NCBI GenBank assembly: GCA_902774015.1
Contig: CACYHB010000003.1
Coordinates: 62,001 to 126,000, forward strand
Origin: Oscillospiraceae bacterium
GTDB taxonomy: Bacteria; Bacillota; Clostridia; Oscillospirales; Oscillospiraceae
Length of the DNA stretch: 64,000 nucleotides
Direction: 5' to 3'
Shown here: piece after piece, positions 36,135 to 50,094 of the stretch
Position numbering within the stretch: the first letter of the stretch is position 1
Layout: each line of letters begins with the position of its first letter
Program-made: the position numbers and the translations under genes
Notes under the pieces: generated by a model
Databases searched by the model: none
What the model was told of the DNA's origin: nothing
Seen by the model: only the letters and a program-made list of their open reading frames with translations

Positions 36135-37730
36135 TTACTGTTTTCTCTGTTTGTTCCGAATTGCCCCGATCCCGGCGAAGATGCCGATGAGCACCCAGGC
36201 CAGGGCGAGCGCGGACAGGAGCATCACTGCCGTATGCGGCAGAGGGCCGAGGTCGCCGGGACCTCCTGCGCCGGCGGCGCTGATCTGATCCAGACGGTAG
36301 AGGGAGTTGACATCGGAAAAGAGCTTCTCCATATAACTCTCATCCACGGTCTGCTTGCGCCGAACCGATTTGGTCACATCCTCAATCATCTGACCCGCCG
36401 CGTCGCGCAGGGAGGTGGAGCCGTTGAACACCGGCGTGGTGAAGGTGTTGGCGGTGTTCTCCATCAAAAGCTTCGTCGCTTCGATCTTAACGGAATAATG
36501 CTCGTTGTTGTCTTCCCCGGAGCGGGAGAGGTAATCCCTGTATTCCTCGCTCTCACGGGCCTTGAAGGTTACGGGGGAATAGCCCTCCGTCTCGGCATAG
36601 GCGATCTGCACCTCGTTTGTCAGCAGATACTGGGCGAAGAGCCAGGAGGCCAGCACCACCTGCGGGTCCTCCTTGTTGAAGATACAGAGGCTCGGCCCCT
36701 GAGAGATCATGAAAGGGTTCTCCGGATCAAACTGCGGCACCGGAAGGACCGCTGTCTCAAAAGGCACCAGCTTGTCTTCACTGATGTCCAGAAGTGGCGC
36801 GTCGGAGCCGATCCAGGTGGCGCCGGCGGTGGAATCCACCGCGAAGAGGCACTGGCCTGCGTTGAGGAAGTTCGCGGGATATGAGGAGATCTTGAAAGTG
36901 GAGAAGGCGCCGTTTTTCACATGCTGTGCGATGGTATACAGGAGCTCCTTGGTGGTGTCGTTGAAGATCTGCACTTCGCCCGACTCCGTGGAGTAGCCCG
37001 CACCTTTCTGCCGCAGCATCTGGATCATCATGTTGTCGGTGGACTTATAGATGAAGGGGATCATGACCTTCTGGCCGTTGAGCTTGTAATTGCCGTCGGC
37101 GTCCTTTGCCATGGCTGCCTCGGAGACCTCCCAGACAAAGTCCCAGGTCAGCACCTCCGGCAGCGTGTAGCCCAGCTTCTCCACGTAGGTCTTGTTGACG
37201 TAGCAGGCCTCGGTGGAGCGCATGTAGGGCACTGCGTAGCTGACACCGCCGATCCTGCCCTCGGCGAGAAATTCGGGGATCACCTCGTCCAGGGTCGGCG
37301 CGTCATAGCGCAGCTCTTTTCCGCCGAAGCCATAGTTTTCGTCTGCAAACAGCTCGTCCAGCGGGACGACCACGTCTGCACCCGTCATATAGGTGGCGAT
37401 GTGATCCGGATAGGTGACGCAGACGTTCGGTGTGGTGTCTGTGGCGATGTTGGTGATCACGTCGTTGTAGATCTTGCCGTAGTCGGTGTAGAGGCGCATG
37501 TTCACCTTGATGTTCGGATAGAGCGCCTGAAAGTCAGCAATCGCTTTCTGATAGATGGCCGTCTGCACTTTATTGGTGTCGTTCTTGGCCCAGAAGGTGA
37601 TCTCATAGTCGCGAGAGCTGTCAAAGCTCTCCGGAACGGAGAAGGCGATTCGTTCCCGCGAACCGTGACAGGCGCAAAGAGGCAGGACCATCAGGAGACA
37701 GAGCAGGATGCAGGCAAGACGTTTTTTCAT
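36135..37730 (-). CDS. Extracellular solute-binding protein, family 1, with C-terminal anchor
   Basis: This 531-aa sugar-binding lipoprotein of a CUT1-type ABC importer has a signal peptide with lipobox LCAC, then YEITFWAKNDTN at the start of the binding fold, and typical YPNIKVNM and AYAETEGYSPV motifs. It is about 100 residues longer than usual. The extra C-terminus includes a hydrophobic helix (TAVMLLSALALAWVLIGIFA) followed by basic residues, so the protein may be anchored at both ends. It is the last gene of the operon. The substrate is unknown. Confidence 0.85.
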   Translation of the reverse strand: MKKRLACILLCLLMVLPLCACHGSRERIAFSVPESFDSSRDYEITFWAKNDTNKVQTAIYQKAIADFQALYPNIKVNMRLYTDYGKIYNDVITNIATDTTPNVCVTYPDHIATYMTGADVVVPLDELFADENYGFGGKELRYDAPTLDEVIPEFLAEGRIGGVSYAVPYMRSTEACYVNKTYVEKLGYTLPEVLTWDFVWEVSEAAMAKDADGNYKLNGQKVMIPFIYKSTDNMMIQMLRQKGAGYSTESGEVQIFNDTTKELLYTIAQHVKNGAFSTFKISSYPANFLNAGQCLFAVDSTAGATWIGSDAPLLDISEDKLVPFETAVLPVPQFDPENPFMISQGPSLCIFNKEDPQVVLASWLFAQYLLTNEVQIAYAETEGYSPVTFKARESEEYRDYLSRSGEDNNEHYSVKIEATKLLMENTANTFTTPVFNGSTSLRDAAGQMIEDVTKSVRRKQTVDESYMEKLFSDVNSLYRLDQISAAGAGGPGDLGPLPHTAVMLLSALALAWVLIGIFAGIGAIRNKQRKQ

Positions 37731-38590
37731 CCTTTGGTACCCCCTCTCGAGACGCCGGCCATGATCTTTTTATGGAAGATCAGGAACAGGATGATGAGCG
37801 GCACGGAAATGACCACCACGGCGGCCATCATCGCAGGGATGTTCTCGCGTCCGAAGCCGTTTTCGCGGATCTCCTGAATGCCGTTGGAGACCAGGAAATA
37901 GGCCTCGTCGTCGGTGATGAGCCGGGGCCATACGTAGCTGTTCCAGCACTCGATGACCTTCAGGATCACAATGGTGACCACCGTGGGCTGGGAGATGGGA
38001 AGCATGACCTTGAACAGATATTTGAGGTCGGACGTGCCGTCCACCTTCGCGGCCTTGTAGAGTTCGTCGGGGATCTGCTCGAAGTTTTCCTTGAGCAGGT
38101 AGATGTAGAAGACAGAGGTGACGGAGGGCAGGATCAGACCCCAGAAAGTGTTGCGCATGCCCCAGTTGGTGATGGTGACGAAGTTCGTGATGATGACAAG
38201 CTCGCTCGGGATCATCATCAGGGAGAGAAACAGGGCGAAGACCAGATTCTTCCCCGGAAAATCCAGACGGGCAAAAGCGTAGGCCGCAAAGATGATGACC
38301 ACCATCATGAGCGCGGTAGTGGCGACGGTGAAGACGATGGTGTTGGTAAAGTAACGCGCCAGATTCACCGTTGTGAAGGCGTCCACATAGTTCTGCAGGG
38401 TGGGGGAGAGCGTGAAGAAGCTGGGGATATATTCGCCGTTATAGGCGCTGTAGCTCTTCACCGAGCTCAGGAGCATCCAGTAGAAGGGAAAGAGGACGAT
38501 CAGCGCCCAGAGGGTCAGAAGCGTGTAGGTGATGATCTTCCGGATCTTGTCGCGCCGGCGGGCAGCCTGTTCGATCGTATCGTAATTCAT
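37727..38590 (-). CDS. Carbohydrate ABC transporter permease, MalG type
   Basis: This 287-aa inner-membrane permease has six transmembrane segments. The EAA loop contains ELYKAAKVDGTSDLKYLFKVMLPISQP, and the C-terminus KKIMAGVSRGGTKG is typical of MalG-like proteins. It overlaps the binding-protein gene by four bases and lies 12 bases after the MalF-type gene, so it is cotranscribed with both. The ribosome binding site is GAGGGGGTG. Confidence 0.9.
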   Translation of the reverse strand: MNYDTIEQAARRRDKIRKIITYTLLTLWALIVLFPFYWMLLSSVKSYSAYNGEYIPSFFTLSPTLQNYVDAFTTVNLARYFTNTIVFTVATTALMMVVIIFAAYAFARLDFPGKNLVFALFLSLMMIPSELVIITNFVTITNWGMRNTFWGLILPSVTSVFYIYLLKENFEQIPDELYKAAKVDGTSDLKYLFKVMLPISQPTVVTIVILKVIECWNSYVWPRLITDDEAYFLVSNGIQEIRENGFGRENIPAMMAAVVVISVPLIILFLIFHKKIMAGVSRGGTKG

Positions 38591-38602
38591 GACCGCACCC
38601 CC

Positions 38603-39493
38603 TCAGTACTGGACGTTCTTTTTGCTGATCATCAGGTTGATGACTGTGATGGTCAGCACGATGGCGAAGAGGATCAGAGCAGCGGCCGAGGCATAGGAGG
38701 GATAGCCGCCGCTGTCGCCGTAGAGCATGTCGTAGACGTAGCCCACGATGGTGTTCATGCCGGCGGCGTTCAGGTCGGTACCGAAAATGGCGACCTCGTC
38801 GCTGTAAGCTTTGAAAGCGCCGATGAAGCCCGTGATGATAAGGTAGAAGATCATCGGGGAGATCATAGGCAGGGTGATGCGGGTGAAGGTGCGCCACTTG
38901 GAGGTGCCGTCGATCTTGGCGGCGTTGTAGTAGTCCTGCCGCACAGAGGCGAGCGCCGAGGTGAGGATCAGGATCTTGAAGGGCATGACCACCCAGACCG
39001 TGTAGATGCACATGACCAGCATCTTCGCCCAGTAGGGACCGTCGATGAAATCCACGGACGGACCGCCGAAAAAGTGGATCAGAAGATTGATGAGACCGTC
39101 GGAATAGGCGGTTTTCTTAAAGAGGATCATGAACACCAGACCGACAGCCAGCGTGTTCGTGACATAGGGCAGAAAGAACACGGTCTGATACAGGTCGCGC
39201 AGAGGTTTGATGGAGTTGAGACCGACGGAGATCAGCAGCGCGAGCCCCGTGGAGACGGGGACGGTGATGACAACAAGAATGAAGGTGTTCTTTACCGCCT
39301 GCAGGAAGTAGGGATCGTGCAGGACGTAGGAATAGTTGTAGAGGCCGGTGCCCCAGAAGGTCTGGGACGCGGAATTGTAGCCCTCCTCGAAGGAGTAGAC
39401 GAAAACGTCAACCAGCGGGTAGACCATGAAAACGCCGAGGAAGGCAATGGCAGGCAGCAGATACAGCCAGGCTTTCCAGTTCTTCTTCTGCAT
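38603..39493 (-). CDS. Carbohydrate ABC transporter permease, MalF type
   Basis: This 296-aa permease partners the MalG-type protein. It has an N-terminal signal-anchor (AWLYLLPAIAFLGVFMVYPL), further membrane helices, and the EAA loop YNAAKIDGTSKWRTFTRITLPM. ATG 39493 follows GGGAGG by six bases on the minus strand; a longer reading frame starting at 39517 overlaps the ATPase gene and is less likely. Confidence 0.9.
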   Translation of the reverse strand: MQKKNWKAWLYLLPAIAFLGVFMVYPLVDVFVYSFEEGYNSASQTFWGTGLYNYSYVLHDPYFLQAVKNTFILVVITVPVSTGLALLISVGLNSIKPLRDLYQTVFFLPYVTNTLAVGLVFMILFKKTAYSDGLINLLIHFFGGPSVDFIDGPYWAKMLVMCIYTVWVVMPFKILILTSALASVRQDYYNAAKIDGTSKWRTFTRITLPMISPMIFYLIITGFIGAFKAYSDEVAIFGTDLNAAGMNTIVGYVYDMLYGDSGGYPSYASAAALILFAIVLTITVINLMISKKNVQY

Positions 39494-39506
39494 GGAGCGC
39501 CTCCCT

Positions 39507-40604
39507 TCAGACCTCAAAGGGGATGCGCTCTTCGGTCACGGCGTCGAAAATGTGAACCTTGGCGGGCTTGAGCGCAAAGCGGACGGATTCATGCCCGACG
39601 TCGATCTCCTCCTCGGAGGAAATGATGGCGCGGACCGTCTCGCTGACGGCCGCGGGATGAACGGAGACAACGCTGCGGTCGCGGCCCATGACCTCCACCG
39701 CCTGCAGATGGCAGCTGAGCGGGCCGGCGGCTTCCAGACGGAAACCCTCGGGCCGGACGCCCACGAAGACCTTGCGGTCCGATATGCCTTTTACGTTCAT
39801 CACGCCGTCCTCGCCGATGTAGAGGACGCCGCTGCGCACCTCGCCTTCAAAGACGTTGATGGGAGGCGTGCCGAGGAACTTGGCGACAAAGAGATTCACA
39901 GGCTCATCGTAGACCTTCTGGGGCTGACCGATCTGGTGTACCACGCCGTCTTTCATCACGACGATCAGATCGGAAATGCTCATGGCCTCCTCCTGGTCAT
40001 GCGTGACAAAGATGGTGGTGATCCCGGTCTCGCGCTGGATGCGGCGGATCTCCTCGCGCGTCTGCAGACGCAGGCGCGCGTCAAGGTTCGAAAGCGGTTC
40101 GTCCAGCAGGAGGACGCGGGGCATCTTTACCAGCGCCCGGGCAATGGCGACGCGCTGCTGCTGGCCGCCGGACATCTCCGAAGGCTTGCGCTCCATGAGC
40201 TGTTCGATCTGCACAAGGCGGGCGGCCTCTTCCGCTTTTTTGTTCATCTCCGCTTTGGAGAGCTTTTCTTTGCCTTTCAGGTTCTGCAGCGGGAAGAGGA
40301 TGTTCTGTCGCACGGTCAGATGGGGATAGAGAGCATAGTTCTGAAACACCAGGCCCACGCCGCGGTTCTCGGGCGGCAGACGGGTCACATCGTCCTCCCC
40401 GAAGTAAATCTGCCCGCTGGTAGGAATTTCCAGGCCGCAGATCAGATTCAGCGTAGTGCTCTTGCCGCAGCCGGAGGGGCCGAGCAGGCCGATCAGCTTC
40501 CCGTCGGGGATCTCAAAGGTGAAATCGTTGACGGCGATGACCTCGTCGCCTTTTTTCTGACGGCTGGGGAATTTTTTCGTCAGATGCTGCAATACAACTT
40601 TCAT
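39507..40604 (-). CDS. Sugar ABC transporter ATP-binding protein, MsmK/UgpC type
   Basis: This 365-aa ATPase drives the importer. It has Walker A GPSGCGKST, the Q-loop in FQNYALYPHLTV, signature MSGGQQQR, Walker [14 protein letters not shown] and the switch His in THDQEEAM, then a C-terminal TOBE-like regulatory domain (about residues 245-365). Many Firmicute sugar importers lack a dedicated ATPase and share one; here it is the first gene of the operon. Confidence 0.92.
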   Translation of the reverse strand: MKVVLQHLTKKFPSRQKKGDEVIAVNDFTFEIPDGKLIGLLGPSGCGKSTTLNLICGLEIPTSGQIYFGEDDVTRLPPENRGVGLVFQNYALYPHLTVRQNILFPLQNLKGKEKLSKAEMNKKAEEAARLVQIEQLMERKPSEMSGGQQQRVAIARALVKMPRVLLLDEPLSNLDARLRLQTREEIRRIQRETGITTIFVTHDQEEAMSISDLIVVMKDGVVHQIGQPQKVYDEPVNLFVAKFLGTPPINVFEGEVRSGVLYIGEDGVMNVKGISDRKVFVGVRPEGFRLEAAGPLSCHLQAVEVMGRDRSVVSVHPAAVSETVRAIISSEEEIDVGHESVRFALKPAKVHIFDAVTEERIPFEV

Positions 40605-40796: not shown

Positions 40797-40841
40797 GCGA
40801 TATTTGTTTTTGCCAAAGAGCAGAGGGGAGAAAGGACGGGA

Positions 40842-41108
40842 TCAGCCCTTGACCGCGCCGCTGGTCATACCGGCGATGATCTGCTCCTGGAAGAGCACGT
40901 AGCCGATGATGGAGGGGACGATCGAAATCACGATAGCCGCGTACATGGAAACATAGTCGGTGGAGAACTGGTTGGTGAAATAGCGAATACCGACCTGGAT
41001 CGTGCGCAGCTTTTCGGAGGAGACGATCAGGTTCGCGAAAATGAACTCGTTCCAGCAGGTGAGAAACTGGAAGGTGGCGGCTGTGACGATGCCGGTGCGG
41101 CTCAGCCT
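40842..41108 (-). pseudogene. Remnant of a MalG-type sugar ABC permease, 5' part lost
   Basis: Read on the minus strand, this stretch encodes about the last 88 residues of a carbohydrate permease. It includes CWNEFIFANLIVSSEKLRT, YFTNQFSTDYVSMYAA and the terminal IAGMTSGAVKG, ending in TGA at 40842-40844. The frame is open with no start codon, and homology stops near 41108, about 24 bases from the end of the isomerase gene. The N-terminal two thirds have been deleted. It differs in sequence from the intact MalG-type gene at 37727, so it comes from a separate transporter that once followed the isomerase. Confidence 0.8.
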
Positions 41109-41131
41109 TTCAGGACAGACTCCGGAGAATA

Positions 41132-42478
41132 TTAATACTTGCAGACCTCGAAGCCGAACATGTCGGCCAGAGCCTCCAGCGTTTCGGCATGGCGGCCCTT
41201 CATGACCACAAAATGGGGCTCGAAGCCGTCCAGCACGCTCTGCTCCACAACTTGACGGCTGTTTGAATCGGTTTTCACCACGATGGACGTGCCGATGAAC
41301 TGCCGGGGCTTGTTCAGCGCCTCGCCCTCGGTGAGGAAGAAGCGGAAGCTGCCGTCAGGCTCCCGGCCGATGCGGAAGACGGTGGCCTCCGGGAAGGCCT
41401 CGCAGCCGAAGTTCATGGCCGGGCCGATCTTGCGGTTGGGGTGCACGCCGATCTCGGCGCCGGTGTCCTTCCGGGCCAGCCGGCAGGCTGCGGCGCCGCA
41501 GTGCCAGAAGGTGATGGTGTTCTCACCCTCGTCCAGGGAGACCGGGTCTCCGAAGAAAACTGGCTCGCCGGAAAGCTGCATGCCGATCCACATGGACAGC
41601 GCCCCGTAGATGTCCGCTTCGCATGCGGCTGCCACACCGTCGTCGTTCAGCAGGCTCAGTACGGTGCACACAGGGGTGCCGAAGGCGGTGAAGAAATCCG
41701 GCCAGCAGCGGGAGGCGAGAGCGCCGATGCCGTGGCTGCGCACGTATTCCGTATAGGCTTTGTAAAGCCTCGCGTGGTCCAGGCGGTTGCGCTCGGGCGT
41801 CTTGTCCAGACCGCAGGTCATGCAGGCGGTCTTTTCCAGAAACGCGGCACACTCCTCGTCCGTATAGCCCTTGGCAGCGTCGATGAGTTCTCGGGCCTCG
41901 ATCGCCTCCAGTTCCACGCCGAAAACGCTCATCAGCTCGCTGTCCAGCGCGCGGCCGAAGCCGAAGCCCTGGGGGGTGTGGCCTACAGCGGACATTTTCA
42001 GCGTACGCATCGCGTGCTTCACCCGGGCAGCCGCGGTGCATGCGCGGACGGCGTGAATCACTTCTTCCTCCTCGGGCGAGCCGAAGACGTACGAGAAGGG
42101 GCGACAGTCGAAGGCCCTGAGGGCATTCGCTGCCGAATAAGCACCGGTCAGGGAGTTGAGGCGAAGACGCCCGCCGTCGATGACAGGCTCGCGCAGCGTC
42201 CAGAGCAGGATGGGGCAGTCAAAGCGGCGCAGCACCTCGGACATGTAAGCGGCGTTGGCGAAGGTCAGATTCTGAAAAACGATCAGACTGGGCTCCTGGC
42301 CATCCAGATAGGCACGGAGCTTGTCCAGCGAGAGCAGCATTTCAGCGGGGCAGACGAAGCGCTCGTCCACACTCTTGAGAAGCTGGATGCTGCGCTCAAA
42401 CTGATCCTGCGCGCTCTCCAGATGGAAAGTGGGCACGCCGACGGGGATATAAACAGGGGAAAAGGCTTTTGCGGTCAT
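41132..42478 (-). CDS. L-fucose/L-arabinose isomerase family protein
   Basis: This 448-aa protein shows the fucose/arabinose isomerase layout: an N-terminal Rossmann-like half with LIVFQNLTFANAAYMSEVL and ILLWTLREP, and a C-terminal half with CEADIYGALSMWIGMQLSG, FWHCGAA and a final FVVMKG segment. Such enzymes interconvert aldoses and ketoses with Mn2+. It is divergent from, and shares a promoter region with, the split transketolase operon. In that setting a plausible job is sulfoquinovose to 6-deoxy-6-sulfofructose isomerisation, but the substrate cannot be read directly. The downstream permease remnant suggests it once led a transporter operon. Confidence 0.8.
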   Translation of the reverse strand: MTAKAFSPVYIPVGVPTFHLESAQDQFERSIQLLKSVDERFVCPAEMLLSLDKLRAYLDGQEPSLIVFQNLTFANAAYMSEVLRRFDCPILLWTLREPVIDGGRLRLNSLTGAYSAANALRAFDCRPFSYVFGSPEEEEVIHAVRACTAAARVKHAMRTLKMSAVGHTPQGFGFGRALDSELMSVFGVELEAIEARELIDAAKGYTDEECAAFLEKTACMTCGLDKTPERNRLDHARLYKAYTEYVRSHGIGALASRCWPDFFTAFGTPVCTVLSLLNDDGVAAACEADIYGALSMWIGMQLSGEPVFFGDPVSLDEGENTITFWHCGAAACRLARKDTGAEIGVHPNRKIGPAMNFGCEAFPEATVFRIGREPDGSFRFFLTEGEALNKPRQFIGTSIVVKTDSNSRQVVEQSVLDGFEPHFVVMKGRHAETLEALADMFGFEVCKY

Positions 42479-42521
42479 AGAGCAGACCTCCCGTTGAACT
42501 AATTATTAAACACTGGAAACC

Positions 42522-42550
42522 ATCATAGCCTCCGCCGCTCATTCTGTCAA
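42522..42550 (-). promoter_or_regulatory. Promoter of the isomerase gene
   Basis: On the minus strand a consensus TTGACA (42550-42545) and TATGAT (42527-42522) are spaced by 17 bases. Its -35 box faces that of the transketolase promoter eight bases away. Confidence 0.82.
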
Positions 42551-42558
42551 TATTATTG

Positions 42559-42587
42559 TTGACAATTGCCATGGACGGCGTTACACT
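42559..42587 (+). promoter_or_regulatory. Promoter of the transketolase operon
   Basis: TTGACA at 42559 and TACACT at 42582 are spaced by 17 bases. Together with the divergent -35 box it forms a palindrome (TGTCAA, eight bases, TTGACA at 42545-42564). An AT-rich leader downstream contains TTTAGTTAG and TTGAATTAAAC, possible operator parts for the ROK regulator. Confidence 0.85.
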
Positions 42588-42632
42588 ACATTTAGTTAGA
42601 CCCTTGAATTAAACAATGGGAGGAAATGTAAA

Positions 42633-43460
42633 TTGGATCACGATATCAGAGAAATCTGCAAGGATATCCGCTGCGACATCATGACCAGCATCGGTCATCT
42701 TGGCGTGGGGCATATCGGCGGCTGCCTGTCACTGGTGGAAGTGCTGGCAGTGCTCTATTTTGAAGAGATGAACATCGATCCGGCCAACCCGAAGATGGCC
42801 GGAAGGGACCGCCTGGTCTGCTCCAAGGGGCACGCCGGCCCCGCGGTCTACGCTACGCTTGCCAACCGCGGCTATTTTGACAAGAAGGAGCTGCTGACTC
42901 TCAACCAGGGCGGCACGCATCTGCCCAGCCACTGCGACATGAACCTCACCACCGGCATTGACATGACCACCGGCTCCCTGGGCCAGGGCTTCTCCTGCGC
43001 CATGGGCGTTGCGCTGGGCAGCAAGCTGGAGGGCGACGGCGCCACCATCTACACCATCATCGGCGACGGCGAGAGCCAGGAGGGCCAGATCTGGGAGGCT
43101 GCCATGTTCGCCGCCGCAAAGAAGCTGGATAACCTGATCGCCTTTACCGACTACAACAAGCTCCAGATCGACGGCACCGTGGAACAGGTCAACGACATCG
43201 CGCCTCTGGCCGAGAAATGGGCCGCCTTCGGCTGGAACGTCATTGAGGTGGAGGACGGCAACGATGCGGAGCAGGTGCAGGAGGCCGTGAAGCACGCCAA
43301 GCTCGGCCGCGGCAGCGAGAAGCCCACCATGGTCATCCTCAATACCAAGAAGGGCTGCGGCGTCAAGTGGATCGAGGACCTGGGACCGGGCAATCACAAC
43401 TGCAACGTCAACGAGGAGCAGGCCAAAGCTGCCATCGCAGAGATCAGAGGGGAGGCATAA
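42633..43460 (+). CDS. Transketolase, N-terminal subunit
   Basis: This 275-aa protein equals the thiamine-diphosphate-binding half of transketolase. It has SKGHAGPAVYATLANRGYF, GSLGQGFSCAMGVALG and the TPP motif GDGESQEGQIWEAAMFA with NKLQIDG. Two-carbon ketol transfer requires the partner encoded next. It starts at TTG 42633 behind GGGAGG. Split transketolases occur in ordinary pentose metabolism, apiose catabolism (AptAB) and sulfoglycolysis (SqwGH); the neighbours point away from ordinary housekeeping use. Confidence 0.93.
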   Translation: MDHDIREICKDIRCDIMTSIGHLGVGHIGGCLSLVEVLAVLYFEEMNIDPANPKMAGRDRLVCSKGHAGPAVYATLANRGYFDKKELLTLNQGGTHLPSHCDMNLTTGIDMTTGSLGQGFSCAMGVALGSKLEGDGATIYTIIGDGESQEGQIWEAAMFAAAKKLDNLIAFTDYNKLQIDGTVEQVNDIAPLAEKWAAFGWNVIEVEDGNDAEQVQEAVKHAKLGRGSEKPTMVILNTKKGCGVKWIEDLGPGNHNCNVNEEQAKAAIAEIRGEA

Positions 43461-43463
43461 AAC

Positions 43464-44387
43464 ATGGAAATGAGAGCTGTTTACGCCCAGTGCCTGGCGG
43501 AAATGATGGAGAAGGACAAGCACGTGGTGGTCCTGGACGCGGACCTTTCCAAAGCCAGCGGCACCAGAAACCTTTACGAGCGCTTCCCCGGACAGATGTT
43601 TGACTGCGGCGTGGCCGAGGCGAACATGGCCTCCATCGCGGCCGGCCTCTCCAGCTACGGCTTCAAGCCCTGGATCGAGAGTTTCACGCCCTTCGCTACC
43701 CGCCGCATCTGCGACCAGATCGCGATCTCCATCGTTTATGCCAAGCAGAACGTGAAGGTTGTCGGTACCGATCCCGGCATCTCTGCCGAACTCAACGGCG
43801 GCACACACATGAGCATGGAGGACATCGGCGTTCTCCGCTCCATCCCCGGCATGGTGATTTTCGAGCCGGTGGACGAGGTGCAGCTGCGCGCCGCAATGCC
43901 CGTTCTGGACGCCTACAAGGGCTGCGTGTACATGCGCCTGTTCCGCAAGGTCCAGCCGGTCATCTTCCCCGAGGACTACAAGTTTGATCTCTTCAAGGCG
44001 GACCTGCTCAAAGAGGGCAGCGATCTTTCAATCTTCGTCTCCGGCATGATGACGAAGGACGTGCTTGACGCTTCCGAGCTTCTCAAGGAGCAGGGCATCA
44101 GCGCCGAGATCATCAACGTCCACACCATCAAGCCCATCGACCGGGAGACCGTCATCGCCTCCGCCCGCAAGACCGGCGCCGTGCTGACCGTGGAGAACCA
44201 CAACGTCATCGGCGGCCTGCACTCCGCTGTGGTAGAAGCGCTGGCCGAGGAGAAGATCCCCTCCGTCGCCGTGGGCGTGCCCGACCGCTTTGGCGAAGTG
44301 GGCAAGATGCCCTATCTGCGCCAGATCATGGGCCTCACGGTGGAGAACGTCGTGGAGCAGGCGAAAAAGGCTGTCAGCCTGAAGTAA
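43464..44387 (+). CDS. Transketolase, C-terminal subunit
   Basis: This 307-aa partner carries the pyrimidine-binding and C-terminal transketolase domains. It has VVVLDADLSKASGT at the N-terminus, FDCGVAEANMASIAAGLSS with the catalytic Glu, and VENHNVIGGLHSAVVEAL in the C-terminal domain. Three bases separate it from the first subunit. In the family the C2 unit passes between a ketose donor and an aldose acceptor such as glyceraldehyde 3-phosphate. Confidence 0.93.
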   Translation: MEMRAVYAQCLAEMMEKDKHVVVLDADLSKASGTRNLYERFPGQMFDCGVAEANMASIAAGLSSYGFKPWIESFTPFATRRICDQIAISIVYAKQNVKVVGTDPGISAELNGGTHMSMEDIGVLRSIPGMVIFEPVDEVQLRAAMPVLDAYKGCVYMRLFRKVQPVIFPEDYKFDLFKADLLKEGSDLSIFVSGMMTKDVLDASELLKEQGISAEIINVHTIKPIDRETVIASARKTGAVLTVENHNVIGGLHSAVVEALAEEKIPSVAVGVPDRFGEVGKMPYLRQIMGLTVENVVEQAKKAVSLK

Positions 44388-44406
44388 GAATAGCAGAATA
44401 CGAAAT

Positions 44407-44428
44407 CGGGCGGCCGTTCGGCCGCCCG
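44407..44428 (+). repeat. GC-rich hairpin between transketolase and the RpiB-like gene
   Basis: CGGGCGGC (44407-44414) pairs with GCCGCCCG (44421-44428) around CGTTCG. No T-run follows. It may stabilise the upstream transcript end or lower expression of the downstream genes. Confidence 0.55.
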
Positions 44429-44448
44429 TCATATGAGAGGAGTTTCCC

Positions 44449-44925
44449 ATGAAAATTGCCATCGGCAGCGATAAATCCGGTTTTTCTGCCAAAGAGGCCA
44501 TCAAGGCCTGGCTGCAGAACACGGGCGTGGAGTTTGACGATCTGGGCACCGTGGATCTGGAGCACGTGCACCCCTATTATGAAGTGGCAAACACCGTGGC
44601 CCCTCTGGTGCAGAAGGGAGAATATGACCGTGCCGTGCTGATCTGCGGCACCGGCGCCGGGATGTGTGTGGTTTCCAACAAGTTCAAAGGCGTGTACGCC
44701 GTGGCCTGCGAGGGCGTCTATTCCGCCAAGATGGCCCGCGCCATCAACAACGCCAACATCCTCTGCATGGGCGGCTGGATCGTCGGTCCTGAGATGGCCG
44801 TGGAGATGACCAGGACCTTCCTCGCCACCGACTGGTGCCAGGATCTGGAGGACTGGCGCGCTGCCAATATGCACAAGTTCGCCGTTCAGGTCTCCGCCAT
44901 TGAGGACAGTATCTATGGCAAATGA
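44449..44925 (+). CDS. RpiB/LacA/LacB family sugar isomerase
   Basis: This 158-aa isomerase keeps the RpiB catalytic Cys66 in ICGTGAGM and an N-terminal GSDKSGFSAKEAIK where RpiB has a GSDHxG motif. The basic C-terminal phosphate-binding region of RpiB (GGRHxRR type) is missing; the equivalent segment reads WCQDLEDWRAANMHKF. A substrate without the usual phosphate is therefore likely. In the sulfo-TK pathway the corresponding enzyme interconverts 4-deoxy-4-sulfoerythrose and sulfoerythrulose. It overlaps the dehydrogenase gene by 11 bases. Confidence 0.85.
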   Translation: MKIAIGSDKSGFSAKEAIKAWLQNTGVEFDDLGTVDLEHVHPYYEVANTVAPLVQKGEYDRAVLICGTGAGMCVVSNKFKGVYAVACEGVYSAKMARAINNANILCMGGWIVGPEMAVEMTRTFLATDWCQDLEDWRAANMHKFAVQVSAIEDSIYGK

Positions 44926-46015
44926 ATTCGTCTACGCCCAGCCGGTCAAAATCTGGTTCGGCGAGGGCAAATTCGCGGCGCTCTCTACCATTCTGGAGGA
45001 ACTGGGCGTAGAACGCGCGGTGCTTGTCTGCGGGCGTCATTTCGCGCCGCAGGCGCAGGCCATGACGGAGGCGGACAGCCGCTTCGCCGCGGTGTTTTCT
45101 CAGGTGGAGCAGAACCCCCAGCTCTCCGGTATTGAAGAGACCGTGCGCCTCTGCCGCGAGACGGACGCCCAGGCTGTGATCGGCATCGGCGGCGGCAGTT
45201 CTCTGGACACCGCCAAGTTTGCCGCCGCAGTGGCGCCCAACGAGGGGGAGGCCCTCGACTATTATGAAGGCCGCCGGGCCTTTGACGCGAAGAGCAGGCT
45301 GCTGATCGTCGCAGTCCCAACCACCGCCGGTACTGGCAGCGAGGTGACGCAGGTCTCCGTCGTGAGTCACGGCAGGGAGAAGAAGACGATCAACAATCCG
45401 GCCTTCATGCCCACCGCCGCTATTGTGGACCCGCTGATGACCGTCGGCGTTCCGCCCCGCACCACCATGTGCACCGGGCTTGACGCCATGGCCCATGCGC
45501 TGGAGGGCTACTGGAGCAAAAACCACCAGCCGATCCCTGATCTCACGGCGATCCAGGCTGTGCGGTTGATCCTCGAAAACCTGGAGGCTGCCTACCGTCA
45601 CGGGGACGACCGGGAGGCCCGCGGCAACATGTCGCTGGCCGCGCTGCTCGGCGGGCTCAGCTTTGCTCTGCCCAAGACCGCTGCCAGCCACGCCTGCAGC
45701 TATCCTCTCTCGGAGGATTATCACCTGCCCCACGGGGAGGCCTGCGCCTTCACGCTGGACAGCCTTGTGAAGATCAATGCCGACGAGCGTCTGGGGGCTC
45801 TCTGCCGCGCCGTCGGGCTGAAGGATACGGACGAGCTTGCCGCTCGCATCTGCGCCTTCAAGGAGATGGCCGGGCTGAGAAGCAGACTGGGCGATCTGGG
45901 TGAAGTCGATCTGGATAAGCTCTGCCGCGACTGCGCGGCGCACCCGCTGATGAACAATAACCCCGTCAAGCTGGATGAGGCGGCTCTGCGGAGCATGTTT
46001 GAAGCTCTGCGATGA
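44915..46015 (+). CDS. Iron-containing alcohol dehydrogenase
   Basis: This 366-aa group III metal-dependent alcohol dehydrogenase has the NAD(P)-binding GIGGGSSLDTAK, PTTAGTGSEVT, and metal-binding His residues in GLDAMAHALEG and LPHGEACAF. It reduces an aldehyde or oxidises an alcohol. After a transketolase that releases a two-carbon aldehyde, a reductase such as sulfoacetaldehyde reductase would fit and would regenerate NAD+. ATG 44915 follows GAGGA by eight bases and lies within the end of the isomerase gene. Confidence 0.92.
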   Translation: MANEFVYAQPVKIWFGEGKFAALSTILEELGVERAVLVCGRHFAPQAQAMTEADSRFAAVFSQVEQNPQLSGIEETVRLCRETDAQAVIGIGGGSSLDTAKFAAAVAPNEGEALDYYEGRRAFDAKSRLLIVAVPTTAGTGSEVTQVSVVSHGREKKTINNPAFMPTAAIVDPLMTVGVPPRTTMCTGLDAMAHALEGYWSKNHQPIPDLTAIQAVRLILENLEAAYRHGDDREARGNMSLAALLGGLSFALPKTAASHACSYPLSEDYHLPHGEACAFTLDSLVKINADERLGALCRAVGLKDTDELAARICAFKEMAGLRSRLGDLGEVDLDKLCRDCAAHPLMNNNPVKLDEAALRSMFEALR

Positions 46016-46929
46016 AGCATGCCAATCGGAACGCCGTGGGAATGATCGGCGGGATGGTGCTGGCCTGGTCCATCTATTACGCCGTGAGCAAGGTGGTGGT
46101 TGGCGCCACGGGTTCCGCACTCTTGGCAGGCTTTCTGCTGCGGCTTTCGGCGCTTCTTTTCCTCACGCTACAGCTTCTGCTGGACGGGAATTTCTCCCGT
46201 CTCTTTCATCAGGGGAAAGCGGTCCGCATCCTGCTGATGATCGGCGTGTTCGGCTTTCTGCTGGATCTGTTTGCCAACCTTGGCTACGCCGGGGGCAGCC
46301 TCAGCACAGGCACCGCCCTTTTGAAGACCGACGTGCTGATGGTGAACCTGGTGTCGGTGATCCTGTACAAGAAGAAGCTCTACGCGTCCGACTGGCTCGG
46401 GACCTTTGTGATGCTCTTCGGCGTGCTTTTGGTGCTGGGGATAGACTTCGGCAGCATGCGCGTGAGCGTCTACGACCTGTTTTTCATCCTCAGTGCGATG
46501 TGCGTCACGGCCAACGCTTTTATCATTAAGCGCGCGCAGGACAAATACCACGAGGACGCGGACATGATCTCCTATTACAATAACTTCGTGGTGCTGCTCC
46601 TCTTTGGCGGCAGCGCTGCCGTGACGGGAGACCTGGGCAGCTTTGACTGGGGCGCGCTTGCCAGGCTCTGGTGGCTCGTCCTGCTGGGCGGCCTTGCCCA
46701 GACGGGGATCTACTTTTTCTATTACCGCAATCTGAAGCGCTACGAGGTCTGGGTCGTGAAGCTCTGCCTGCTGCTGATGCCGGTGGTGAGCTGCTTTATC
46801 GGCGTGTTCTTCCTCCATGAGGAACTGACCGTGAAGAAGATGCTGGGGATCCTGGTGGTGCTGGTTGGCGCGGCGATCCTGCTGCTGCGCGGCCGCATCC
46901 ATCACGAGGGGCCCCCGCTTCGCGGCTGA
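46012..46929 (+). CDS. EamA/DMT family transporter in the transketolase operon
   Basis: This 305-aa protein has about ten hydrophobic segments in two EamA repeats (residues 8-135 and 160-295), with TALLKTDVLMVNLVSVILY ending the first. It overlaps the dehydrogenase gene by four bases. Export of the pathway's end product (for example isethionate) or import of its substrate are both possible. It differs clearly from the EamA protein at 14011. Confidence 0.85.
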   Translation: MKHANRNAVGMIGGMVLAWSIYYAVSKVVVGATGSALLAGFLLRLSALLFLTLQLLLDGNFSRLFHQGKAVRILLMIGVFGFLLDLFANLGYAGGSLSTGTALLKTDVLMVNLVSVILYKKKLYASDWLGTFVMLFGVLLVLGIDFGSMRVSVYDLFFILSAMCVTANAFIIKRAQDKYHEDADMISYYNNFVVLLLFGGSAAVTGDLGSFDWGALARLWWLVLLGGLAQTGIYFFYYRNLKRYEVWVVKLCLLLMPVVSCFIGVFFLHEELTVKKMLGILVVLVGAAILLLRGRIHHEGPPLRG

Positions 46930-46961
46930 CCGGTTCAATACAGCGGAAAGGAGAATGTGAA

Positions 46962-48185
46962 ATGCCCTTTGAAGGCGACAATATGATGGGCGTAAAGCGC
47001 AATAACCGCAGTGCCGCGCTTCGCATCCTCCACAAAAAAGGCGGGATGTCCCGCAAGCGGCTCGCCGAGGCCATCAAACTCACGCCCGCCGCCATCACGA
47101 AGATCGTGTCCGAGATGATGAGCGACGGCCTGCTGCGGGAGGGCAACGTGCTCCCCAGCGAGGGCGCCGGACGACGGGAGATTCTGGTGGAGTTGGACCC
47201 ATCCGCGGGCGTCGCTTTGGGCGTGCTGATCAATCTGCGGCAGACCATTGTCTCCGCCGTCTGGCTGGACGGCTCGGTGATCTTCTCCGAGGAGATCCCG
47301 ATCGAACCCCACGCCGACGCGGACAGCACGACGGCCATGCTGGCCGGACGGCTGCTGGCGCTGACGGAAGAGCATCGCATTTCCCGGGAACGGATCGTCG
47401 GCCTGGGGCTCGCCGTCCGCGGCATCACCTCCTCCGACCGGCGCCGTCTGAACAACAGCTTCGGTTCGCTGCGGCAGGAAAACTATCCGCTTTGTGAGCG
47501 CATGGAAGCCCTGACCGGCATCCCCTGCGTGATGGACAACAATGTGCGCGCTCTTTTCGCGGCCCAGATGTTCCTTTCCGACGACGGCACCAGCGGCTCG
47601 CAGTTTTTCCTGCGCTGCGAATACGGCATCGGCGCGGCTCTCTCCATCGACGACCGCATCTGGCACGGCGTCACGGAGCAGTGCGCCGAGATCGGACACA
47701 TTCCCGTCATCAAGCGGGGCGGAAAGCCCTGCTCCTGCGGGAAAAGCGGCTGCCTGGAAACCATTGCCTCGCCCTCTGCGATCCGAGAGGATGCGCTGGC
47801 GCTGCTCTCGGAAGAGCGCACGCCGGTACTCTGGAAGCTCTGTCAGGAACACGGGCGGGACAATCTGACGGTGGACGATATTCTGAACGCTGCGCGCAAC
47901 GGGGATAACGGTGTGGCTACGGTGGTGGACAATGCGGTCAACGCGCTGGGCAGCGCGCTCAAATCCGTGATCTATCTCACGGACCCGGGCAAGATCGTGC
48001 TCTACGGCGGGATTTTTGAAAACCCCTACTATCTTTCGCGTCTCCTCAGCGAGATGCGGGAAGGCGTGGACAGCGGCCATGTCACCGTGGTGGAAAAAAG
48101 CGTGTTTAACCACCGCCTGGAAAACAAGGCGGCCGGCCTGTTGGCGGTTCGGCGCTTTTTTGAAAACGGCGGCGTCAGCCTCTGA
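46962..48185 (+). CDS. ROK family transcriptional regulator
   Basis: This 407-aa protein has a winged helix-turn-helix at residues 12-65 (ALRILHKKGGMSRKRLAEAI, then TPAAITKIVSEMMSDGLL) and a ROK domain with a zinc site in GGKPCSCGKSGCLE. XylR/NagC-type ROK proteins repress sugar genes until they bind an inducer. The presence of the HTH argues against a sugar kinase role. As last gene of the operon it is the natural regulator of the divergent promoters at 42522-42587 and perhaps of the GH43 gene. Confidence 0.9.
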   Translation: MPFEGDNMMGVKRNNRSAALRILHKKGGMSRKRLAEAIKLTPAAITKIVSEMMSDGLLREGNVLPSEGAGRREILVELDPSAGVALGVLINLRQTIVSAVWLDGSVIFSEEIPIEPHADADSTTAMLAGRLLALTEEHRISRERIVGLGLAVRGITSSDRRRLNNSFGSLRQENYPLCERMEALTGIPCVMDNNVRALFAAQMFLSDDGTSGSQFFLRCEYGIGAALSIDDRIWHGVTEQCAEIGHIPVIKRGGKPCSCGKSGCLETIASPSAIREDALALLSEERTPVLWKLCQEHGRDNLTVDDILNAARNGDNGVATVVDNAVNALGSALKSVIYLTDPGKIVLYGGIFENPYYLSRLLSEMREGVDSGHVTVVEKSVFNHRLENKAAGLLAVRRFFENGGVSL

Positions 48186-48429: not shown

Positions 48430-50094
48430 ATGCAGATCAAAAACCCGATTTTGCCCGGCTTTCACGCCGACCCCTGCATTTGCCGCAGGGGAGAGGATTA
48501 CTACATTGCCGTATCCAGCTTTGAGTGGTTCCCGGGGATCCCCATCTATCACTCCCGGGACATGAAGCATTGGGAACTCTATACGCATGTTCTGACCGAC
48601 GCGGAGCAGTGCGACCTGACCCGCCTGCCTTCCGCCAAGGGGATCTGGGCGCCCTGCCTGACCTACTGCGAGCAGGAGGATCTCTTCTACGTGGTCTACG
48701 GCGTGATGAACTCCATGAACGCCCGGTATTTTGACATCGACAACTATCTCATCACCGCAAAGGACGTCCGCGGGCCGTGGAGCGAGCCGGTATATCTCCA
48801 TTCCGCCGGCTTTGACGCATCGCTGCTTCATGACGACAACGGGCGGAAGTGGCTGGTCTCACTGGAATGGGAGACGCGCTCAGGCTACGAGAAGCCCGGC
48901 CAGATCTGCATCGTGGAGTATGACCCGTCGGCAAAGACCATCAAGGGCTATCCGAAGCGGATCTGGCGCGGCGGAACGGATCGGGGCTGCCTGGAGGCGC
49001 CGCATCTGACAAAACGCAAAGGGTATTATTATCTCATGTGCGCCGAAGGCGGCACTGGCTATTATCATTGCGTCACCATGGCGCGGGCGAAAGACTCCCT
49101 CGGCCCTTGGGAGGGAGACCCCACGAACCCCATCCTCACGGCGGCGCCGGAGAACCGGAACGAGCGGGCGGACGTGGATCATCTGAAGCCCCGATATTAC
49201 AATCGGGCGAGCTATCTGCAGAAATGCGGTCACGGCAGCTATGTGGAAACCACGCTTGGGGAGACCTATCTGGTGCACCTCTGCGCGAGACCCTTCACCC
49301 CGGAGCTGCGCTGCACGCTGGGGCGGGAGACTGCCATCCAGAAGATGCAGTGGACGGAGGACGGCTGGCTGCGCCTCGCCTCCGGCGGCAACATGGCGCA
49401 GACCTTCGTTGAGGGGAGCGCGCTTCCCGACTGGATCCCGGAACCGCTTCCGGAAACAGACAACTTTGACTCGCCCGTGCTGGGTCTGCCTTTCTATGCG
49501 CCGCGCATCGACCCGAACAGCTTCTGCGATCTTCGCGCCCGGCCGGGCTGGCTTCGCATGCGCGGTCAGGAGGCCCAAGCCTCCCTCAACCGTGTCAGCA
49601 TCCTGGCGCGAAAGCTCCTGAGCCTCGATGCGGAGATCGTCACCAGGATGGATTTTTATCCGGAGGTCTACCAGCACAGTGCGGGCCTGATCCTTTACTA
49701 CGATAACATGAATTACGCCTGGCTGCGCAAATACTGGAGCGACACGCTGGCCGGGCCGGCTATCTCGGTGCTTCGTCTCAATAACGGAGAGAAGACGGAA
49801 TTTGACAGCGCACGAGCAGCAGTGAGCGACGGACCCGTCTGGATGAAGCTGCGGGTGCAGGGGAGAGCATCGCAGTTTTCCTGGTCACCGGACGGGGAGA
49901 CCTGGAATGAGATCGGCCCGGCCTTCGATACCAGCGAGTTCTCCGATGAATACTCACAGTATGGTGAGTTCACCGGCTGCTTTGTGGGCCTGACCTGCGT
50001 TGACAGTCTGCAGCATAAAAAATCCGCTGACTTTGATTTCTTCACCTACCGTGACCTGGAGGCCAAGGCGCACGAGCAGGACGGGGATTTGTAA
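48430..50094 (+). CDS. Glycoside hydrolase family 43 protein (beta-xylosidase type)
   Basis: This 554-aa protein has a five-bladed propeller domain with candidate catalytic residues Asp14 (PGFHADP), Asp129 (GFDASL) and Glu189 (CLEAPH), matching GH43 subfamily 11 xylosidases. A C-terminal beta-sandwich from about residue 345 (DNFDSPVLGLPF) with HSAGLILYYDNMNYAW resembles the companion domain of XynB. There is no signal peptide, so it likely cleaves imported xylo- or arabino-oligosaccharides in the cytoplasm. Confidence 0.9.
   Translation: MQIKNPILPGFHADPCICRRGEDYYIAVSSFEWFPGIPIYHSRDMKHWELYTHVLTDAEQCDLTRLPSAKGIWAPCLTYCEQEDLFYVVYGVMNSMNARYFDIDNYLITAKDVRGPWSEPVYLHSAGFDASLLHDDNGRKWLVSLEWETRSGYEKPGQICIVEYDPSAKTIKGYPKRIWRGGTDRGCLEAPHLTKRKGYYYLMCAEGGTGYYHCVTMARAKDSLGPWEGDPTNPILTAAPENRNERADVDHLKPRYYNRASYLQKCGHGSYVETTLGETYLVHLCARPFTPELRCTLGRETAIQKMQWTEDGWLRLASGGNMAQTFVEGSALPDWIPEPLPETDNFDSPVLGLPFYAPRIDPNSFCDLRARPGWLRMRGQEAQASLNRVSILARKLLSLDAEIVTRMDFYPEVYQHSAGLILYYDNMNYAWLRKYWSDTLAGPAISVLRLNNGEKTEFDSARAAVSDGPVWMKLRVQGRASQFSWSPDGETWNEIGPAFDTSEFSDEYSQYGEFTGCFVGLTCVDSLQHKKSADFDFFTYRDLEAKAHEQDGDL

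What the first reader, a model, noticed from the sequence alone, without database searches (positions are those of the whole stretch)
41132..48185. Candidate transketolase-type sulfoquinovose (sulfo-TK) degradation cluster
Seen: divergent genes for a fucose/arabinose isomerase-like enzyme and an operon with split transketolase (two subunits), an RpiB-like isomerase lacking the usual phosphate-binding region, an iron-type alcohol dehydrogenase, an EamA transporter and a ROK regulator. No sugar kinase is present. Known, from memory: the sulfo-TK pathway of gut Clostridia uses an SQ isomerase, SqwGH (split transketolase), SqwI (4-deoxy-4-sulfoerythrose isomerase) and SqwF (sulfoacetaldehyde reductase), and excretes isethionate. 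Inferred: this cluster encodes that route or a close relative. The apiose route (AptAB) also has a split transketolase but needs an apulose kinase, which is missing. No GH31 sulfoquinovosidase is in the window.
Basis: partly seen in the sequence, partly recalled or inferred. Interest (0 to 1): 0.85.

Follow-up and report, generated by a model that had tools for sequence, protein, structure and literature searches.

The report
Sulfoquinovose-eating operon of a rumen-type bacterium
A gut bacterium carries a compact gene set that most likely breaks down the plant sulfolipid sugar sulfoquinovose by a known transketolase route, and next to it lies the stump of a sugar importer that several relatives still have.

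Summary
The reading as a sulfo-transketolase (sulfo-TK) sulfoquinovose (SQ) cluster is well supported by sequence, not by assay. The isomerase is 61-63% identical to those of two operons that look like transaldolase-type SQ operons. The RpiB-like protein falls in one clade (100/100) with those of three other SQ-cluster lineages and has changed phosphate-ligand sites. The transketolase has the published RAFDR motif and lies outside the RSFHR-type clade. In 102 genomes of the window's genus SqwI and the sulfoquinovosidase family YihQ co-occur (55 both, 33 neither, 14 discordant). The route was reported in March 2026 for rumen Ca. Limivicinus, so the pathway is not new.

New here: (1) straight after the isomerase lies an 87-residue stump of an ABC permease that relatives keep intact beside a YihQ gene; locus L021 shows both permease and YihQ half eroded. 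(2) The genome's only YihQ over cut-off lies on another contig, in a clade with two recalled sulfonate-contact residues changed (R to Q, Y to F). (3) The operon is a mosaic: shared SqwI, a transketolase of a separate lineage, a weakly related Fe-ADH. The last step (isethionate) is least certain.

The parts
41132..42478 (-). SQ isomerase, SftI/SqvD type
   Evidence: NCBIfam NF048012 over residues 9-446, 379.5 bits (cut-off 700; the isomerases of sulfo-TAL-like loci L108/L109 score 414/404); 61-63% identity to L108/L109 and one clade with them, SH-aLRT 100
42633..43460 (+). SqwG, N-terminal subunit of split transketolase
   Evidence: Pfam Transketolase_N 4.6e-47; 56-60% identical to SqwG of SQ loci L110, L114, L154
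43464..44387 (+). SqwH, C-terminal subunit of split transketolase, R4-A31-F77-D103-R161
   Evidence: Pfam; motif, tree; RAFDR as described in PMC11659671 section 3.4
44449..44925 (+). SqwI, RpiB-like 4-deoxy-4-sulfoerythrose isomerase
   Evidence: One clade with SqwI of L168-L171, 100/100, against RpiB; K9 for His, W110 for Arg
44900..46015 (+). iron-type alcohol dehydrogenase, putative sulfoacetaldehyde reductase (SqwF position); a start at 44915 (ATG, sixth codon) seems more likely than the listed TTG
   Evidence: Pfam Fe-ADH; best NCBIfam PsrA 211 bits, SarD 165 bits, both far below cut-off
46012..46929 (+). EamA transporter, putative isethionate exporter (SqwE position)
   Evidence: Pfam EamA 2.3e-24; 39-40% identical to the EamA of SQ loci L114/L155
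46962..48185 (+). ROK-family regulator
   Evidence: Pfam ROK + winged HTH; related ROK genes (25-30%) in loci L108, L110, L114, L154
40840..41131 (-). vestige: last 87 residues of a CUT1-type ABC sugar permease, directly after the SftI stop
   Evidence: 91-100% identical to the C-terminus of the permease in 16 fetched relatives, 58% in two more (L020, L027); residues 200-286 of the 286-residue L039 permease
42522..42550 (-). sigma-70-like promoter for SftI, TTGACA-17-TATGAT
   Evidence: 11 of 12 matches; 2 sites found, 0.5 expected
42559..42587 (+). sigma-70-like promoter for the sqwGHI operon, TTGACA-17-TACACT
   Evidence: 10 of 12 matches
36135..40604 (-). complete ABC importer (binding protein, two permeases, ATPase) next to the vestige; role in SQ uptake open
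   Evidence: in 80 fetched loci the best listed match to any of its four proteins is 39% identical

Best explanation
The cluster encodes the sulfo-TK pathway. SftI turns SQ into 6-deoxy-6-sulfofructose. The split transketolase SqwGH moves a C2 unit to glyceraldehyde-3-phosphate, giving xylulose-5-phosphate and 4-deoxy-4-sulfoerythrose. SqwI isomerises this to sulfoerythrulose. SqwGH removes a second C2 unit, leaving sulfoacetaldehyde, which the Fe-ADH probably reduces to isethionate for export by the EamA protein. The ROK protein probably controls the divergent promoters. No kinase is needed because the sulfonate stands in for the phosphate. Shown here: gene content, family and clade membership, active-site substitutions, genome co-occurrence with YihQ, and the eroded permease. 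Inferred: every reaction, the end product, export and regulation.
For: SftI family hit over the full length and clade with the isomerases of sulfo-TAL-like operons. SqwI clade 100/100; in 10 genomes that I picked from earlier searches the SqwI type (47% or more) is present in 4 of 4 with a SQ transketolase cluster (G110, G199, G201, G242) and absent, with RpiB-like matches of 30-45% only, in 6 of 6 without. SqwH reads RAFDR in 72 of 75 window-type rows, the other 3 KSFDR; of 40 other rows 12 have His at that site. In 102 same-genus genomes: SqwI in 65 (62 at 76% identity or more, two at 54%, one at 44%), YihQ over cut-off in 59, both in 55, Fisher p = 1e-13, not corrected for kinship. A YihQ-type GH31 lies in the fetched locus in 39 of 53 loci with room beyond SftI. 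No SftT-like transaldolase found in the genome (no positive control). Paper: Ca. [quoted passage not shown]
Against: RAFDR also occurs in 13 of the 40 other rows, and at least six of these (L149-L153, L156; SqwH 50-70% identical) lie in 15-17 kb stretches without SQ genes, so the transketolase alone does not fix the substrate. The Fe-ADH is only 31-39% identical to the SqwF-position enzymes of other SQ clusters. SftI scores below NCBIfam's curated cut-off, as do the isomerases of the sulfo-TAL-like loci. The genome's only YihQ over cut-off lacks two recalled sulfonate-contact residues. 14 of 53 loci with room show no YihQ-type gene, the close relative L005 among them.
Confidence: 0.86

Rival explanations
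1. Same enzymes, different end product: the route stops at sulfoacetaldehyde or goes to another C2 sulfonate, because the Fe-ADH is not a true SqwF and the EamA exports something else.
For: Fe-ADH only 31-39% identical to other SqwF-position enzymes and far below any NCBIfam cut-off; related loci L037/L055 have a short-chain dehydrogenase and a Vut_1-type membrane protein after SqwI (Pfam for L037; L055 by likeness) and L069 has no Fe-ADH there.
Against: Fe-ADH directly follows SqwI in 64 of 73 loci with downstream room; its best NCBIfam models include reductases of anionic C2 aldehydes (phosphonoacetaldehyde first, sulfoacetaldehyde sixth); by eye, no sulfoacetate genes were seen downstream of SqwI in 12 loci chosen for that look, some of them cut short by the contig end.
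Confidence: 0.15
2. The cluster acts on another 6-substituted 6-deoxyhexose (for example a different sulfo-sugar), the altered GH31 being the glycosidase for it.
For: The own-genome YihQ and its clade replace the recalled sulfonate-contact Arg and Tyr by Gln and Phe, on a long branch.
Against: The same SftI-SqwGHI core shares a locus with a canonical-type GH31 in 22 loci and with the second type in 17, never both, of 53; the L108 locus, laid out like a sulfo-TAL operon, also has Gln at the Arg site.
Confidence: 0.07
3. An apiose or other kinase-dependent route (AptAB-like) or a housekeeping pentose pathway set.
Against: No sugar kinase gene in the operon; transketolase outside the RSFHR-type clade; RpiB-like protein with changed phosphate-ligand sites; isomerase in the SftI family.
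Confidence: 0.03

Closest known systems
sulfo-TK cluster of Ca. Limivicinus sp900317375 from cow rumen (PMC13219744)
   Same: Same pathway assignment (SftI, SqwGH, SqwI, SqwF, SqwE). The window's relatives are MAGs titled Oscillospiraceae, Ruminococcaceae, Clostridiales, Clostridia or Bacillota, many with ruminant sample names, and 65 of 102 genomes of its genus carry SqwI.
   Different: The paper's figures and sequences were not readable, so identity of genus and cluster is likely but unproven. The window has no YihQ gene and only the stump of the operon's permease.
archetype sulfo-TK of Clostridium sp. MSTE9 and the bifurcated cluster of Faecalicatena sp. DSM22707 (PMC11659671)
   Same: SqwG, SqwH, SqwI, SAA reductase and SQ isomerase; the numbered motif residues R9, A36, D108, R166 of DSM22707 lie at a constant offset of 5 from the window's R4, A31, D103, R161.
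   Different: L114, whose layout resembles the Faecalicatena cluster as described, has another isomerase type (26% identity) and transaldolase-like genes; the transketolase of L155, a very similar locus of a genome in the same genus, is of a separate lineage. No SftT-like hit in the window genome.
sulfo-TAL operons (SftI-SftT-SLA reductase type; here L108, L109)
   Same: SQ isomerase 61-63% identical, with a YihQ-type GH31 nearby.
   Different: Transaldolase-like and reductase-like genes instead of SqwGHI.

Membership tests
sulfo-TK pathway | SQ isomerase present | tested here: met
   NF048012 full-length hit, below the strict cut-off as in the sulfo-TAL-like loci; clade with their isomerases
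sulfo-TK pathway | split transketolase with the RAFDR head-group motif, apart from RSFHR transketolases | tested here: met
   but RAFDR also occurs without SQ genes nearby (L149-L153, L156)
sulfo-TK pathway | SqwI: RpiB-fold isomerase with changed phosphate ligands | tested here: met
sulfo-TK pathway | SqwF sulfoacetaldehyde reductase (or SqwD/SqwKL) | tested here: inconclusive
   Fe-ADH at the right place, 31-39% identical to SqwF-position enzymes of other SQ loci
sulfo-TK pathway | sulfoquinovosidase in genome or cluster (accessory: the paper's Caproiciproducens lack one) | tested here: inconclusive
   One YihQ over the NCBIfam cut-off (609 vs 553 bits) on contig C9, with the recalled R301 and Y508 sites read as Q and F; none in the window. 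The NAD-dependent SqgA/GH188 type was not searched for
sulfo-TK pathway | SQ-dependent growth and isethionate release | not testable with these tools
   needs culture or heterologous expression
apiose pathway (AptAB) | apulose kinase in the operon | tested here: not met
   no sugar kinase gene among the cluster genes; a kinase elsewhere in the genome is not excluded (an FGGY kinase exists on contig C8)
apiose pathway (AptAB) | transketolase groups with AptAB | not tested
   no named AptAB sequence found in the collections used
bifurcated sulfo-TK/sulfo-TAL | sulfofructose transaldolase SftT | tested here: inconclusive
   no match to L108 SftT in the genome, but the MAG is 94% complete and the call had no positive control

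The most novel reading that the evidence does not exclude
The window genome shows one SQ-release system replaced by another. The ancestral operon (SftI + canonical YihQ + ABC importer) was eroded: in L021 pieces of a canonical YihQ (residues 1-261 and 408-472) and of the permease (154-286) still lie in order after SftI; in L053 the permease starts at residue 36; in the window only residues 200-286 are left. The function passed to a separate YihQ clade, present in L021, L053 and the window genome, that reads the sulfonate without the Arg/Tyr pair or cleaves a different sulfoquinovoside. That would make the QQQWF clade a second solution to sulfonate recognition within GH31. (Probability raised from 0.35 to 0.40 on the L021 pieces found.)
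Probability: 0.4. Interest if true: 0.6.

Novelty: new member of a known kind. Interest (0 to 1): 0.42.

Why it matters
SQ is a very abundant sulfonate, and its fermentation to isethionate feeds sulfide formation in the rumen and gut (PMC13219744, PMC11659671). The cluster places this genome among the likely fermenters. The graded erosion of importer and canonical YihQ and the altered YihQ clade suggest a change in how the sugar is obtained, which matters for yihQ-based surveys: a residue rule built on canonical YihQ could misread these organisms.

Tried and rejected
Apiose and housekeeping readings were set aside on gene content, motif and trees. The bifurcated route is unlikely because no SftT was found (no positive control). 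I asked whether the neighbouring ABC importer (36135-40604) is the SQ importer of this lineage: in 80 loci the best listed match is 39% identical, and its binding protein hits only general sugar/glycerol-phosphate binding proteins in the PDB; left open. A DUF4867 (PF16161) homologue on contig C8 lies with an FGGY kinase and a FucI-like isomerase and is not assigned to this pathway. A conserved operator palindrome between SftI and SqwG was sought in 70 loci; no exact palindrome was shared by more than 9, so no regulator site is claimed. I read 451 bases around the start of YihQ on C9 and upstream of it by eye for the window motif TTTAGTTAGA and saw none; one search covered the window only. Named anchors were looked for on plasmids; the listings and three annotated regions showed no SQ cluster. 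Sulfoacetate-variant genes (SqwD/KL) were looked for by eye downstream of SqwI in 12 loci and not seen.

Rows dropped and labels: the transketolase tree used 51 of 115 rows, and its 'housekeeping' label was given mostly by the His motif, not by neighbourhood. The SqwI tree used 23 rows, 10 of them picked from the genus; the SftI tree used 28 rows. The YihQ residue table took only ORFs over 600 residues. The first GH31 tally used too strict an identity limit for the canonical group and was replaced, whose classes rest on identity (over 42% to L026, over 55% to L079). The genome lists for the Fisher test were copied by hand into, and there the two YihQ kinds were told apart by bit score; at least one 'second kind only' genome (G431) also has a partial match under the cut-off near its SqwI locus.
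Full report
What is there. The seven genes lie exactly as described. Pfam and NCBIfam give a fucose-isomerase-type protein that matches the sulfoquinovose isomerase model NF048012 over its whole length, the two halves of a transketolase, an RpiB/LacAB protein, an Fe-ADH, an EamA transporter and a ROK regulator. Two near-consensus, divergent sigma-70-like promoters lie between the isomerase and sqwG. The window is part of contig C3 of a 2.78 Mb draft genome, 94% complete with 5.9% contamination. The 80 kept relatives of SqwI in genome contigs (of 128 confirmed) are all MAG-type records titled Oscillospiraceae, Ruminococcaceae, Clostridiales, Clostridia or Bacillota, many with ruminant sample names.

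Is it the SQ isomerase? The window protein scores 379.5 bits against NF048012 (cut-off 700). Two isomerases from loci that look like sulfo-TAL operons score 414 and 404, also under the cut-off: L108 (GH31, MFS-like transporter, transaldolase-like, reductase-like, TauE-like) and L109 (transaldolase-like, reductase-like, DUF4867, GH31, tripartite-transporter-like), read by eye, the DUF4867 confirmed. The L108 and L109 transaldolases match F6P-aldolase models and the L108 reductase several dehydrogenase models, the sulfolactaldehyde reductase model fourth, all below cut-off. The window protein is 61-63% identical to the two isomerases and in one clade with them, SH-aLRT 100. The isomerase of L114 and L154 is another type, 26% identical. 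PMC11659671 (section 3.3, first part, and section 3.4 read) likewise reports 32% identity between the Faecalicatena isomerase and that of the sulfo-TAL strain SOS1.

Is it SqwI? In a tree of 23 rows the RpiB-like protein and those of L168-L171 (three families with SQ clusters) form one clade, 100/100, against eight RpiB rows. All 15 have GSDKSG where RpiB has Asp-His, Trp at position 110, and a C-terminus with LE.WR. The assignment of the His and Arg sites to phosphate binding in RpiB is recalled. In ten genomes that I picked from the earlier searches, the SqwI type was found in the four with a SQ transketolase cluster and not in the six without, which include two sulfo-TAL-like genomes and four with a similar transketolase only.

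Is it SqwGH? The motif published for sulfofructose transketolase, RAFDR against RSFHR (PMC11659671), is met at R4, A31, F77, D103, R161. Among 115 distinct C-subunit rows, 72 of 75 window-type rows are RAFDR and three are KSFDR; of the 40 other rows 13 are RAFDR, 9 RSFHR, 7 RSFDR and 11 others, 12 in all having His at the D103 site. In a 51-row tree the His-type rows fall apart from all SQ rows. Two results limit this. RAFDR proteins 50-70% identical to SqwH lie in stretches without SQ genes (L149-L153, L156). And the SQ transketolases are not one clade: L110, L155 and L157 form a separate lineage from the window group, and the starred branches force at least three changes of the SQ label. The simplest reading is that related split transketolases were recruited to SQ clusters more than once, while SqwI was shared. 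This is inference.

Last steps. The Fe-ADH follows SqwI in 64 of 73 loci with downstream room but is only 31-39% identical to the SqwF-position enzymes of L110, L114 and L154. Its best NCBIfam model is phosphonoacetaldehyde reductase PsrA; sulfoacetaldehyde reductase SarD comes sixth; both are below cut-off. Some relatives have other genes there. Reduction of sulfoacetaldehyde is therefore likely, not shown.

Release of SQ. In 53 fetched loci with at least 4.5 kb beyond SftI, 39 have a YihQ-type GH31 within the locus: 22 of canonical type, 17 of a second type, none both; 14 have neither, the close relative L005 included. Over 102 genomes of the genus, SqwI is in 65 and YihQ over the NCBIfam cut-off in 59; 55 have both, 10 only SqwI, 4 only YihQ, 33 neither; Fisher p = 1e-13, without correction for kinship or incompleteness. 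The own genome has a single YihQ over cut-off, on contig C9 and without cluster genes around it. Its six best solved relatives are all YihQ-type or GH31 entries: E. coli YihQ (5aed, 5aee), 8r56 (organism not shown), A. tumefaciens (5ohy, 5ohs) and E. rectale (6pnr) (5OHY and 6PNR are named as SQases in passages of PMC11968277; 5ohs bears the same name and length as 5ohy). At the five sites known as QQRWY in E. coli YihQ (recalled from Speciale 2016 and Abayakoon 2018; neither was read, the second is not held) it reads QQQWF, as do all 18 full-length members of its clade, whereas 25 canonical rows read QQRWY. L108 reads QQQWY. So the second type lacks the recalled sulfonate-binding arginine. 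By bit score, 15 genomes of the genus have only the second type over cut-off, and 14 of them carry SqwI, which argues that it serves this pathway.

The erosion. Directly after the SftI stop, 40840-41131 on the minus strand encodes the last 87 residues of an ABC sugar permease, 100% identical to residues 200-286 of the L039 permease, 91-100% over 16 relatives and 58% to L020 and L027. Of the 22 canonical-YihQ loci, 15 hold this permease at over 80% identity (13 as 286-residue ORFs, L052 and L075 cut by the contig end), L072 holds it at 80%, and six (L026, L028, L033, L036, L044, L080) show none in the fetched stretch. In L053 the permease aligns from residue 36, straight after SftI, and may still be a gene. 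In L021 pieces matching canonical YihQ residues 1-261 (63% identical to L039) and 408-472 (82%) and permease residues 154-286 follow SftI in that order. Both L053 and L021 carry a second-type GH31, as the window genome does. No YihQ piece was found between 35001 and 42500 of the window. The window locus is thus best read as a deletion derivative that lost the linked SQase and importer. A mis-join in the draft genome is possible, but the graded series in separate MAGs makes it less likely; the close relative L005 shows neither stump nor importer. The complete ABC importer that now follows (36135-40604) has no close match in the 80 loci; whether it imports SQ is open.

Relation to known work. 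PMC13219744 (abstract, the section on rumen microcosms and find-passages read) reports sulfo-TK in Ca. Limivicinus sp900317375, 35.5% of 313 Ca. Limivicinus genomes with the capacity, two yihQ copies in some species with several YihQ clades in the genus, and isethionate as product in microcosms. The window genome is probably of that genus or near it, but the tools gave no genus name. The pathway is therefore a new member of a known kind. In the listings of my five paper searches and the passages read I saw no description of the permease stumps or of the QQQWF clade; figures, supplements and subscription papers were not readable, so this is not proof that they are unpublished.

Noticed in passing
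L158-L162, L164 (split transketolase loci of other Clostridia): Split transketolases with RSFDR (KSFDR in L158) sit with a GAPDH-like and a PGK gene; L160-L162 and L164 also have an IolD-like ThDP enzyme gene (Pfam checked for L161 only; the rest by eye): possibly a transketolase-based polyol route.
   Followed up: partly
L150, L152: A RAFDR split transketolase lies beside an Fe-ADH 39-40% identical to the window's, near a glutamate-dehydrogenase-type gene (Pfam for L150) and without SQ genes: function unknown.
   Followed up: partly
L183 (own genome contig C8), 7299-10917: A DUF4867 (SftX-family) protein lies between an FGGY sugar kinase and a FucI-like isomerase, so this family is not limited to SQ operons; PMC11968277 proposes a mutarotase/ring isomerase role in ketose metabolism.
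   Followed up: partly
L037 and L055, downstream of SqwI: The Fe-ADH/EamA pair is absent; a Vut_1-type membrane protein and a short-chain dehydrogenase follow SqwI, perhaps a replacement for the last step (Pfam for L037).
   Followed up: partly
window 48430-50094 (+): A GH43-family glycosidase gene follows the ROK gene; no link to SQ was seen.
   Followed up: no
L068, L079, L083: A second, divergent split transketolase pair (41-48% identical, KCFDR) lies a few kb from the SQ cluster.
   Followed up: no
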